Source: Bacteroidota bacterium
GTDB lineage: Bacteria > Bacteroidota > Bacteroidia > UBA8524
Reading direction: 5' to 3'
NCBI GenBank assembly: GCA_008933805.1
Contig: WBUH01000001.1
Location: 186,001 to 250,000, forward strand
Length of the DNA: 64,000 bases
Numbering within the stretch: position 1 is the stretch's first letter; each line of letters begins with the position of its first letter. Positions 9,085 to 16,637 of the stretch are shown in pieces. A model generated the notes under the pieces. That model was not told the origin of the DNA, did not search any database, and worked only from the letters and a program-made list of their open reading frames with translations. The translations under genes were made by a program, and so were the position numbers.

Positions 9085-9516
9085 TTACGCCGAGGCGCAC
9101 TGAGCGCAAACACCTGTCACTACCAAATCGGCTGTTTTGATTGAATAACCGACCGGAACTTCAAATTTCGGTACGGTGTAATGGTCTAAACATTCAATTT
9201 TTTGGCAATTAGTGCATTTAAAATGGATGTGCTCGTCGTGGTGGGCGTGAACATCACAGTTATCGCACAATGCGTATTGGGTGGCACCGCTGTCGTCGGG
9301 TATTTTGTGCAAAATACCGCTCTCAAGAAACGAGTGCAGCGTGCGGTAAATAGTTACCCTGTCAAACTCTTTACCCAAGTTAGCCTCAAGGTCGGTTTGG
9401 GTAAGGGCGCGCTTATAAGCAATAAACTCAGCCAATACCTTAATACGGGTATCAGTTACCCGCAACTTGTGGTTGCGTAGTGTGTGGAGTACATGTTCTG
9501 TTTGTGTTTCGGCCAC
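9085..9516 (-). CDS. Fur-family metalloregulator (Zur/Fur/PerR type)
   Basis: This is a winged-helix metal-responsive repressor, 143 residues. The recognition helix is in FDRVTIYRTLHSFLESGIL (51-69). The metal region has DVHAHHDEHIHF (His 90, 92, 93, 96, 98), and the structural zinc CxxC pairs are C101/C104 and C137/C140, with an extra C84/C87 pair. Whether it senses zinc, iron or peroxide cannot be read with certainty; the neighbourhood favours zinc. The start is GTG at 9516, with a TATCTTTG -7-like box only 6 bp upstream (9523-9530). It converges on the DUF4625 gene, whose promoter carries Fur-type 7-1-7 repeats. Confidence 0.93.
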   Translation of the reverse strand: MAETQTEHVLHTLRNHKLRVTDTRIKVLAEFIAYKRALTQTDLEANLGKEFDRVTIYRTLHSFLESGILHKIPDDSGATQYALCDNCDVHAHHDEHIHFKCTNCQKIECLDHYTVPKFEVPVGYSIKTADLVVTGVCAQCASA

Positions 9517-9552: not shown

Positions 9553-11349
9553 TTATAACCCAATTAAGTTTTGAGCAATGCTATCAAGTCGTTTCGAATC
9601 CAATTTTAGATTATCAATAAGACTAGTTAAGTTAGAATAAAATTTTAACACTTCACTTTTTAATTCTAATTCCTCCAAGACAAACTCTAATTCATCATAA
9701 TCTAGATGATAATGAAAACTAATCATATTAGTTTCAGCCTTGGAAAACTTGCTTATTAAATAATTTGTAACATTAGGGCGAGAATATGCAATATAAAAAT
9801 CACCATACCGAATCGACATATTAAATACTTCTAATATTTCTTCTTGCAATCTAAGTCCATTCATTGAAGAAGTTAATTCGATAAACTCCGAACCATTAGC
9901 TTCAAGGGTGGATGATAAGTTTAAATATTCATAAAAATTTTTAACAACATCGGGTTTCTCTTTGGAAGATTTAATTGCAAATTGAGTTTCACTTAAAACA
10001 GGGATAAACAAATTATCAATAATGTTCTTTTCATCAAGCTCATAACACTAGGAAAGAAAATTGCTGATTTCTGCCCCATCTATTTTAGCTATTTTTTCTG
10101 AATATATTCGTTGTTTAATTTCATCTGATTGCTTACTAATTAGTGCCGCAGCAAAATACTCCTGTAGTGAACGATGAGGGAATTTAAGTTCCAATCCATC
10201 TTGCACTAAGATAGACATATTCACTTTTAAATCATACAAAAAATCATCATCATTGAATTTAAAACCAAGTTGAGTTTTGATTTTCTTGATTAAATCATTA
10301 AAATAGGGTTCATCAAAAGAAAAAAATTCATCAAAAAAGCTTGCATAAGAAAACCAACATAATGTTATTTCAATTTCCTCTCTGCTTAATTTACTTTTTA
10401 AGTCATGAAGATAGCTATCGCCTTTTGTTATACTATCATGTTTAGTAAATAGTGTGTCGATAACATTTTGATAAAATTTTGATTTTGTTTTTGGCAATTC
10501 AGGATTATATCTGTAGACAAATATAAACATTGATAGGAGAAGGGGATTTTTAAGAAAATGTAAAAACTGGTTGTTTTCTACCTTGAAAACGTCCTCAAGT
10601 ATTTTATTCTTTGAAACCGTTCCGTTCATTAATTTGACCTGTTGAGTTATAAATAAAGCTATTTGTTGATTGTCAAGTGAATCAACGATCCAGTTATTGA
10701 ATCTCTTTATTCTTTCAGCATTTGTACCAGGTCGTGTTGTAAGAACGAACTGATTTTTTGGGAACATGTCAACGAAGAATTCTATTTCATAAGCCACTTT
10801 GTCCACCTCTTCCGATGAGATTTCATCATAGCCATCTAACAGAAAAACAAATTGTCCATTTTCCAAGGACCGATTTAAAAAAGTATCATTTGATTTAATT
10901 TTGTTATTTAAAATAACCTCTTTGATATAAGTGCTCAAACTTAGTTTATGGTATTTGAGGTTTCGTAATTCTATTAGTAATGGGATTTTAAAGTTTTCTT
11001 TTATACAGCAATGGAAGATATTGACCATTAACATACTTTTACCTGAACCTGCAGCTCCAATAATTGTGATATAATTCTCTTTTTTCATTAGCCTGTAGCC
11101 ATCAGTATGACTTTTGCTGCCAAACCAGTCACTACTCAATTTTAATGGGAAATAAATTTTTTCAAACTCAACAGTCTCATTTCTGAATAAAAATGTTTTC
11201 ATTTGGGAATATTTAATTCTTTGATTTTCAAGGTAATTATGAATGCCGTCGTCAAGGAAATTGGCTAGCTCATCTTTCCCAGCCTTTAAAAGTGTCATCA
11301 GAAAAGATGATTTGGTATTCACGAAGTTTGCAATTTCTAATTCGGTCAT
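9553..11349 (-). pseudogene. NACHT-family NTPase interrupted by one in-frame TAG (putative defence STAND protein)
   Basis: One continuous frame runs from the ATG at 11349 to the TAA at 9553, broken only by TAG at 10048-10050 (codon 434 of 598). The first part contains Walker A GAAGSGKSM (98-106), Walker B FVFLLDGYDE (167-176), TTRPG (204-208) and the NACHT-associated FPHRSLQEYFAA motif. After the TAG the same frame reads CYELDEKN and 150 more residues, which look like the protein's own helical tail rather than a second gene. NACHT proteins in bacteria are signal-transducing NTPases, several of which act in phage defence. Base composition is clearly more AT-rich than on either side, pointing to horizontal acquisition. 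It may be a decayed gene, a sequencing error or a functional truncated product. Confidence 0.85.
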
Positions 11350-11450: not shown

Positions 11451-13127
11451 ATGATTAGCATTAACGATATTAAAACCCCTACAGGAAACACACTTACCTG
11501 CAAAGGCTGGGTGCAGGAAGCTGCCTTGCGTATGTTGATGAACAACCTTGACAGCGATGTGGCTGAACGTCCCGAAGACCTGATTGTGTACGGAGGATTG
11601 GGTAAGGCTGCCCGTAACTGGGAAAGCCTTGATTTGATAGTGAAGGCGTTGAAAGACCTGAACGAAGATGAAACTCTGCTGATACAAAGCGGTAAACCTG
11701 TTGGAATATTGCCTACCCATAAAGACGCTCCCCGTGTACTTATTTCAAACAGTATGCTGGTGCCCAAATGGGCTACTTGGGAGCATTTTAGGGAGTTGGA
11801 TGCTAAAGGATTGATTATGTACGGCCAAATGACGGCCGGTAGCTGGATATACATCGGCTCGCAAGGGATTGTGCAAGGAACGTATGAAACCTTTGGAGAA
11901 CTTGCCCGCCAACATTACGGAGGTACCTTAAAAGGTACTTTGAACGTTACTGCCGGACTTGGTGGTATGGGCGGTGCACAACCGCTTGCCATCACTATGA
12001 ACGAAGGTGTTTGTTTAGCCGCTGAGGTAGAAGAATGGCGTATTCGCAAGCGTTTGCAAACCCGCTATTTGGATGTAATGACCCGCAACATTGACGAGGG
12101 TATAGATATGGCTCTTCGCGCTAAAGAAGAAGGTAAAGCCGTGTCTATTGGTGTGGTTGCCAATGCGGTAAACTTGTTGCAACGTATGCTTGAAAGGGGT
12201 GTAATTCCTGAAAGCCTTACCGACCAAACCAGTGCGCACGACCCGTTGATTGGTTACTATCCGCACACGATTGATGTAGAAGCGGCTGACCGTTTGCGCC
12301 GTGAAGACCCTGATAAATACATTAAACTTAGTTACGAGAGCATGGCTCGCCACGTGGAGTTGATGCTTGAGTTTCAGAAAAAGGGCAGCGTAACGTTCGA
12401 TTACGGTAACAACCTGCGCGCCCGTGCGCTTGAACAAGGGGTGAAAAACGCGTTTGATTTTCCCGGTTTTGTGCCTGCGTTTATCCGTCCTCAGTTTTGT
12501 GAGGGCAGGGGGCCGTTCCGTTGGGCAGCTTTGTCAGGCGACCCTAATGATATTTACATAACCGATAAAGTAATTCTTGAGCTATTCCCCGAAAACGAAG
12601 GCTTGCACCGTTGGATAAAAATGGCGCAGGAAAAAATTGAGTTTCAGGGATTGCCTGCCCGTATTTGCTGGTTAGGTCAAGGGGAACGTGAAAAAGCAGG
12701 TATTGCCTTTAATAACTTGGTAAAAGAGGGTAAGGTAAAAGCACCGATTGTAATTGGTCGCGACCATTTGGATACCGGCTCGGTAGCATCGCCTAACCGC
12801 GAAACCGAAGCCATGATGGACGGTAGCGATGCGATTGCCGATTGGCCGATACTTAACTCATTAATTAATACCGCAGGCGGAGCCAGTTGGGTGAGCATTC
12901 ACCACGGCGGCGGTGTGGGTATGGGTTATTCTATCCACGCAGGGATGGTAATTGTAGCCGATGGTACCGAAGACGCTGAACGCCGCTTGCACCGCGTGTT
13001 GCACAACGACCCTGCAATGGGTGTTATCCGTCATGCCGATGCAGGGTATGATATTGCTAAAGATACTGCCCGCAAACACCGTTTGGATATTAAAGAGCGG
13101 TTGTTAGGTAATGCAGCCGCAGAATAA
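11451..13127 (+). CDS. hutU: Urocanate hydratase
   Basis: This enzyme converts urocanate to imidazolonepropionate, step two of histidine breakdown, in the cytoplasm and with tightly bound NAD+ as electrophile. It is 558 residues, the usual length. Family hallmarks are the glycine-rich GLGGMGG (169-175), the [17 protein letters not shown] segment, C406 in [12 protein letters not shown] and [11 protein letters not shown] near the C-terminus. The other hut genes (hutH, hutI, hutG) are not in the window, so the pathway is dispersed or continues elsewhere. TATTTTTG at 11421-11428 is a plausible -7 box. The stop is followed at once by a 14-bp inverted repeat and a small unrelated gene. Confidence 0.97.
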
Positions 13128-15572: not shown

Positions 15573-16235
15573 ATGCGTAATATCCTAATTAAAAGCATAT
15601 TTCTAGTGTTGATGACAGCGACTTCTTTGTCGTATGTAAAGGCGCAAAAAAATAATGCTGACGACTCATTGGTTCAATTTTCAGGCTTGGTGATGAGTTC
15701 TGATAGTTTAATGGCGTTGAATGATGTGAACATACGTATCAAAGGTCATTTTTACGGAACTATCAGTAATGCATTAGGTATATTTACGTTAGTGGCTAAA
15801 AAAAGCGATACGGTTGTTTTTACCAGTATAGGCTATAAGCCCAAACAGTACATAGTTCCCCATAATCTTAGCAGTCGTCGTTACTCAATGGTGATTACCC
15901 TTGCTTCGGATACCTTTGTGGTAGATACGGTGTTTATCAAGCCTTTTATCAGCAATGCATTGCTGCCGCATTACTTTGCTACGGTAGATATACCCGAAGA
16001 TGAAATGGAAGTTTTGGCAAGGCATAACCTTGAAGCTGAGTTTTTGAAACAACAAGCTATGGCATTGCCATCAGATGCTGCTGAAAATCAAGATTTCACT
16101 ATACGTCAGGAAGCTGCAAAATATTACTATCAGGGACAAGCACCGCCTATAAATATTCTTAACCCCTTTGCTTGGGCGCAATTTATAAAGGCGTGGAAAA
16201 ACGGGGATTTTAAAAACAAGAATAAAAAGAAGTAG
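15573..16235 (+). CDS. Secreted CarboxypepD_reg-like domain protein
   Basis: This 220-residue protein has a signal peptide ending SYVKAQ. Residues ~35-115 form a CarboxypepD_reg-like beta-sandwich of the kind found at the N-terminus of TonB receptors (FSGLVMSSDSLMALNDVNIRIKG, then GIFTLVAKKSDTVVFTSIGYK). The remainder is helical, with a Lys-rich tail (KNKNKKK), and no barrel follows. Standalone proteins of this type are common in Bacteroidota and are periplasmic or outer-membrane associated; the function is unknown. TAACTTTG at 15552-15559 is a -7-like box. A small membrane protein gene follows after 9 bp and is probably co-transcribed. Confidence 0.75.
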   Translation: MRNILIKSIFLVLMTATSLSYVKAQKNNADDSLVQFSGLVMSSDSLMALNDVNIRIKGHFYGTISNALGIFTLVAKKSDTVVFTSIGYKPKQYIVPHNLSSRRYSMVITLASDTFVVDTVFIKPFISNALLPHYFATVDIPEDEMEVLARHNLEAEFLKQQAMALPSDAAENQDFTIRQEAAKYYYQGQAPPINILNPFAWAQFIKAWKNGDFKNKNKKK

Positions 16236-16244
16236 CAGCCTTAC

Positions 16245-16637
16245 ATGGGGTGGCAGATTTTTACCTCAGTGGCAATTCTATTATTGAATTGTACAATAGC
16301 CATAAAACTTTACGGGGAGTTAATTGATTACAGGCGCAGTAACATAGCGGTTCTTGCGTTGAGTTTGCTGGTGTTTTTACTTTCTATTTTTGATGTTAGT
16401 ACAGCTAATTTTTACGTAGAAAGGGCTGTAGCAATAGTACTACTATCTCTTTCCATTTTTGTTTTTTACTTGATGTCTAAGCTATGGCTATTACTAATAA
16501 AACCGATAGTCTTTGATTGGAATAAAGCGTTACTTAAAAAGTACTCTACAAAAGAAAAACCTACCCGTTATTTTAATGTTTTAGAATGGGTAGTAGTATT
16601 GTGGGTTAAGCGATTACCTGTTTTATGGTTTTTCTAA
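16245..16637 (+). CDS. Small integral membrane protein of unknown function
   Basis: This is a 130-residue protein with three hydrophobic segments at about residues 3-22, 33-55 and 60-88, followed by a short basic stretch (KKYSTKEKPTR) and a final hydrophobic segment. No family was recognised. It begins 9 bp after the CarboxypepD_reg-like gene, so the two are probably one transcript. The ATG at 16245 is the first available. Confidence 0.55.
   Translation: MGWQIFTSVAILLLNCTIAIKLYGELIDYRRSNIAVLALSLLVFLLSIFDVSTANFYVERAVAIVLLSLSIFVFYLMSKLWLLLIKPIVFDWNKALLKKYSTKEKPTRYFNVLEWVVVLWVKRLPVLWFF

What the first reader, a model, noticed from the sequence alone, without database searches (positions are those of the whole stretch)
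9553..11349. NACHT NTPase broken by a single in-frame TAG
The two reading frames 10048-11349 and 9553-10011 are in the same frame, separated by one TAG and 12 sense codons. Reading through gives ...NFLS-stop-CYELDEKN..., natural-looking NACHT tail sequence. The gene is AT-rich and isolated. Either it has just been inactivated (as defence genes often are), a truncated NTPase core is still functional, or the stop is suppressed or erroneous.
Basis: partly seen in the sequence, partly recalled or inferred. Interest (0 to 1): 0.6.

Follow-up and report, generated by a model that had tools for sequence, protein, structure and literature searches.

The report
Bacterial antiphage NACHT gene, stop-codon interrupted
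A horizontally acquired bacterial immune gene of a known family (a NACHT/NLR-related antiphage protein) carries one premature stop codon that cuts off its last domain, most likely an ordinary, recent loss of the gene or a sequencing error and not a new mechanism.

Summary
On the minus strand a 433-codon NACHT frame (11349-10051) ends in TAG (10048-10050), and the same frame stays open for 164 more codons to a TAA (9553-9555). The stretch after the stop is genuine gene: all 60 full-length homologues aligned run through this site and on for 108-228 residues, Glu437 (three codons past the stop) is invariant, and a tail profile scores the post-stop sequence at 25.5 bits against 12.4 for the best of 5000 shuffles. 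The gene is a diverged relative of bNACHT proteins with a 'short NACHT-associated C-terminal' (SNaCT) domain; many homologues match Pfam SNaCT8 or SNaCT9. The stop falls at the NACHT/SNaCT border, so the predicted product keeps the NTPase module and loses the C-terminal domain. The gene is an AT-rich (29.8% GC) one-gene insertion between hutU and a fur-family gene that are 66 bp apart in a related genome. TAG is an ordinary stop here and no CUA-anticodon tRNA was found, so recoding is unlikely. Some relatives are broken too (three frameshifted, one ending early, of 79 genome loci). Best reading: a recent single-lesion inactivation, or a base error that these data cannot exclude. Ordinary, low interest.

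The parts
10048..11349 (-). NACHT head, 433 codons plus TAG; complete NACHT module with its motifs intact
   Evidence: Pfam NACHT 47.8 bits against a cut-off of 26.7; homologue profile 494.9 bits on the head
11035..11058 (-). Walker A / P-loop GAAGSGKS (residues 98-105), intact
   Evidence: Sequence; G101, G103 and K104 invariant in 61 sequences
10822..10851 (-). Walker B region FVFLLDGYDE (residues 167-176), intact
   Evidence: Sequence; F167, D172, G173, D175 and E176 invariant
10147..10179 (-). PHRSLQEYFAA motif (residues 391-401), the last strongly conserved motif of the NACHT module, intact
   Evidence: H392 and Q396 invariant
10048..10050 (-). In-frame TAG at codon 434; inside a predicted helix (429-438), at the NACHT/SNaCT border
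   Evidence: all 60 aligned homologues have a residue in this column; helix 429-438; SNaCT8 starts at L025 residue 441, which aligns with window residue 438
9553..10047 (-). Severed tail: 164 codons plus TAA, in the position of the SNaCT domain
   Evidence: Tail profile 25.5 bits against a shuffle maximum of 12.4; E437 invariant and D439 nearly invariant; the full-length profile aligns to residue 596 of 598
9085..9516 (-). FUR-family regulator, one flank of the insertion
   Evidence: Pfam FUR 9.3e-11; orthologue in G001 and G002 next to hutU
11451..13127 (+). Urocanate hydratase (hutU), the other flank of the insertion
   Evidence: Pfam Urocanase; 85% identical orthologues in G001 and G002

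Best explanation
The locus is a horizontally acquired, single-gene NLR-related defence gene (bNACHT type, with a C-terminal SNaCT-type domain). It has recently been inactivated by one nonsense codon at the border between the NACHT module and that domain. Shown: the frame, the stop, homology on both sides of the stop, the domain border, and the insertion between hutU and fur. Inferred: that intact relatives work as antiphage NTPase switches; that loss of the C-terminal domain abolishes function; and that the mutation is recent, because it is the only lesion and the tail matches homologues as well as expected.
For: The stop column is filled by a residue in 60 of 60 full-length homologues, whose tails are 108-228 aa long against 164 here. 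An invariant Glu and a near-invariant Asp lie 3 and 5 codons past the stop. The tail profile scores 25.5 bits, the best of 5000 shuffles 12.4 and the reversed tail -0.4. Homologue L180 aligns from residue 17 to 589 without a stop. The catalytic motifs are intact. Tail identity of the window against the 60 homologues averages 15.2%, compared with 14.6% for other pairs of similar head identity, so there is no sign of decay. The read-through model is ordered across the stop and at the C-terminus. TAG ends 8 of the 45 other long ORFs of the window, and no CUA tRNA was found. Breakage also occurs in relatives: L078, L083 and L093 are frameshifted and L035 ends early, of 79 genome loci.
Against: The closest homologue found is only 45% identical, so neither dN/dS nor the age of the stop could be computed. 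There is one genome only and no raw reads, so a base error is not excluded. The stop lies at a domain border, which is also where a functional truncation would lie.
Confidence: 0.62

Rival explanations
1. The TAG is a sequencing, assembly or polishing error (or a minor-strain base in a metagenome assembly), and the real gene is an intact 598-residue bNACHT protein.
For: It is the only lesion in a 1.8 kb gene. Both parts match intact homologues to their natural ends, and the tail shows no decay.
Against: The only other TAG-separated same-frame pair of open stretches of at least 100 codons in the window is explained as two adjacent genes, so there is no sign of a poor assembly. No reads were available.
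Confidence: 0.22
2. The 433-residue NACHT-only product is functional, for example as an NTPase switch without the C-terminal domain or as a dominant-negative regulator.
For: The stop lies at the NACHT/SNaCT border. All NTPase motifs are intact, and the module resembles NLRC4/NOD2.
Against: No naturally tail-less homologue was found: loci that end early are frameshifted or end near a contig end. The stop cuts a predicted helix just before the invariant Glu. The tail has stayed open and undecayed, which a long-standing truncation would not need.
Confidence: 0.09
3. The stop is read through, or the tail is made as a separate polypeptide by reinitiation, so that a full or split protein is still made.
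For: The tail frame is fully open, and a TTG lies 12 codons after the stop.
Against: TAG is an ordinary stop in this genome and no CUA tRNA was found among 36 tRNAs. The restart codon is TTG, with no ribosome-binding-site-like sequence seen by eye. No homologue is split here.
Confidence: 0.05

Closest known systems
bNACHT clade 14 (SNaCT-bearing bacterial NLR-related antiphage proteins, e.g. bNACHT02, 11, 12; PMC12169576)
   Same: Single protein of about 600 aa, no recognisable N-terminal effector domain, central NACHT module, short C-terminal domain. A homologue in a Vibrio phage is annotated NLR_like_bNACHT01 and carries Pfam SNaCT11.
   Different: Here the C-terminal part is cut off by a stop, and the severed tail does not itself reach a Pfam SNaCT model.
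Pfam SNaCT8 (PF22714) / SNaCT9 (PF22715) proteins of Bacteroidota
   Same: 10 of the 61 aligned sequences match SNaCT8 and 18 match SNaCT9. L025, 45% identical over the head, has SNaCT8 at 441-596 of 598, the position of the severed tail.
   Different: The window tail is too diverged to match either model; it probably belongs to a SNaCT subfamily without its own Pfam entry.
Animal NLRs (NLRC4, NOD2)
   Same: Best fold matches in the PDB are the NACHT modules of NLRC4 and NOD2 (E about 1e-11, TM 0.40-0.45).
   Different: No leucine-rich repeats were found; the C-terminal domain is short.
EruA (NF058535), NACHT antiphage protein
   Same: Weak match over part of the NACHT module (31 bits).
   Different: Far below the 1000-bit cut-off; the EruA model is 1318 positions long. 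Not a member.

Membership tests
NACHT-module STAND NTPases (PF05729) | NACHT domain above the curated cut-off, with P-loop and Walker B | tested here: met
   47.8 bits against 26.7; motifs intact
bNACHT clade 14 (SNaCT type) | Sequence relatedness of the NACHT module to SNaCT-bearing proteins | tested here: met
   Head aligns full length with SNaCT8 and SNaCT9 proteins; it lies in a well-supported 10-row clade with L025, a SNaCT8 protein
bNACHT clade 14 (SNaCT type) | C-terminal SNaCT domain matching a Pfam SNaCT model | tested here: inconclusive
   No Pfam SNaCT match for the tail at E <= 1, but it matches the homologues' C-terminal profile (25.5 bits)
bNACHT clade 14 (SNaCT type) | C-terminal domain present in the translated product | tested here: not met
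   TAG at codon 434 ends the standard-code product before the domain
bNACHT clade 14 (SNaCT type) | No recognisable N-terminal effector domain | tested here: met
   No effector family in the N-terminal 80-90 residues
bNACHT clade 14 (SNaCT type) | Phage protection | not testable with these tools
   Needs a plaque assay
Stop-codon recoding (TAG read as sense) | TAG not used as an ordinary stop; CUA-anticodon tRNA present | tested here: not met
   8 of the 45 other long ORFs of the window end in TAG; no CUA tRNA
EruA (NF058535) | Score at or above the 1000-bit cut-off | tested here: not met
   31 bits

The most novel reading that the evidence does not exclude
The 433-residue NACHT module without its C-terminal domain is the functional product in this lineage, e.g. 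a minimal NLR-like NTPase or a negative regulator, with the domain shed at its border by a single codon.
Probability: 0.06. Interest if true: 0.4.

Novelty: new member of a known kind. Interest (0 to 1): 0.13.

Why it matters
Mainly as annotation: the gene is a diverged bNACHT/SNaCT-type protein that pipelines would call a 433-aa NACHT protein or a pseudogene, and its severed tail appears to belong to a SNaCT subfamily that Pfam does not yet cover. It adds one case to the turnover of defence genes: arrival as a single-gene insertion, then loss by a point lesion. The cut at the NACHT/SNaCT border also suggests a simple question, whether a NACHT module without SNaCT does anything.

Tried and rejected
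Natural end at this position with a separate downstream gene: rejected, since the full-length homologues run through. As a contrast, the other TAG-separated same-frame pair in the window (15573-16235 and 16245-16637) is two genes, the second with its own ATG just after the stop. Genetic-code change: rejected. Chance open frame after the stop: rejected (about 4e-7, plus the tail profile). Direct repeats flanking the insertion: a short similarity (TAGTATC..TTTGTA) does not exceed shuffles. PADLOC gives no match for the protein, and only weak matches to other families for relatives. The paper describing the bNACHT clades (Kibby et al. 2023) is not held. The first viral-contig scan with the single sequence found nothing; the scan with the alignment found 21 relatives. 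The tail alone does not find L180 by BLASTP (E 0.67): its homology shows only through the profile or the continuous alignment.

Full report
Observation. On the minus strand the frame from ATG 11349 runs 433 codons to TAG at 10048-10050, then 164 more codons to TAA at 9553-9555. The tail is 27.9% GC, where random sequence would give a stop at about 8.6% of codons, so 164 open codons have a chance of about 4e-7; the other five frames of that stretch hold 11-27 stops.

What the gene is. The head carries a NACHT domain (PF05729, 47.8 bits) with P-loop and Walker B intact, and the read-through model is closest in fold to NLRC4 and NOD2. Relatives are proteins mostly of about 580-700 aa across Bacteroidota and, more distantly, on plasmids of E. 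coli, Klebsiella, Agrobacterium and Paenibacillus, and in a Vibrio phage record (Vinavirales) annotated NLR_like_bNACHT01. Of 61 aligned sequences 18 match Pfam SNaCT9 and 10 SNaCT8; the phage relative matches SNaCT11. [quoted passage not shown] The window gene is therefore a diverged relative of that kind.

The sequence behind the stop is real gene. Sixty full-length homologues were aligned without the window protein, which was then added. None has a gap at the TAG column, and they continue for 108-228 residues (window 164). One caveat: the selection asked for at least 60 residues beyond the BLAST match. Among strong matches (200 bits or more) not cut by a contig end, only L035, L078 and L083 failed that criterion; two are frameshifted in the head, and L035 ends 39 bases before its contig end. 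A profile of the 60 tails scores the window tail at 25.5 bits; the best of 5000 shuffles reaches 12.4 and the reversed tail -0.4. Glu437 and Asp439, 3 and 5 codons after the stop, are invariant and nearly invariant. The full-length profile aligns to residue 596 of 598, and L180, found independently, aligns from 17 to 589 (35% identity) without a stop.

The stop lies at a domain border. SNaCT8 begins at residue 441 of L025, aligned with window residue 438. The AlphaFold2 model of the read-through protein (mean pLDDT 82.9) has the stop inside helix 429-438, with the blocks 431-450 at 96 and the C-terminal helix at 88-94; the middle of the tail (461-550) is less certain, 62-89.

How it got there. 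In related genome G001, hutU and the fur-family gene are divergent neighbours with 66 bp between their start codons (counted on the sequence; coordinates) and no NACHT gene; in G002 they are also neighbours, in tandem. In the window 1,934 bp lie between them, containing this gene alone, and short similarity to the G001 intergenic sequence remains on both sides. None of the four other family members searched has a homologue. GC is 29.8% against 47-49% in the flanking genes. This is a one-gene insertion, presumably horizontal.

How it most likely works, or does not. Intact relatives are inferred to act as STAND NTPase switches: the C-terminal part senses and the NACHT module oligomerises and signals (general scheme in PMC12169576). 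The predicted 433-residue product has the switch and lacks the C-terminal domain, so it is most likely inactive. That is inference; no experiment on SNaCT removal was found in the papers held.

Why not recoding. TAG ends 8 of the 45 other long ORFs in the window. Of 37 tRNA matches in the genome, ARAGORN confirms 36 and none has a CUA anticodon; the remaining weak match (35.8 bits) has no CUA in its anticodon loop by eye. The genome is 97.67% complete, so a missing tRNA is not wholly excluded.

Age and error. There is no second lesion, and the tail is as similar to its relatives as other tails are at the same head distance (15.2% against 14.6%). The stop is thus recent, or not real. No relative closer than 45% was found, so selection cannot be measured. 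Broken copies are not rare in the family: L078, L083 and L093 are frameshifted in the head and L035 ends early, among 79 genome loci.

Verdict. It is an ordinary broken, or mis-sequenced, member of a known defence family.

Noticed in passing
window 15573-16637 (+): A second pair of same-frame open stretches separated by one TAG. Here homologues of the first end near the stop and the second has its own ATG at 16245, so these are two genes; a useful contrast to the NACHT case.
   Followed up: yes
G000 C8:185622-186119 (+), locus L170: A second NACHT-domain gene over the Pfam cut-off elsewhere in the same genome, in a 1062-aa open frame, with no stop inside the matched part.
   Followed up: no
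L078, L083, L093, L035: Relatives of this gene that are themselves broken: three frameshifts inside the NACHT module and one early end near a contig end.
   Followed up: partly
L181 (G576 C1:2888656-2889932): Another apparently broken relative: the N-terminal part is in a different frame with three TAA stops.
   Followed up: no
L022, Vibrio phage 10N.286.49.B11_PE003: A 14.8 kb Vinavirales phage record carries a SNaCT11 NACHT gene, so this defence family also rides on small phages.
   Followed up: no
window 9553-10047 (-): The severed tail matches the homologues' C-terminal profile but no Pfam SNaCT model, which points to a SNaCT subfamily without a curated entry.
   Followed up: partly
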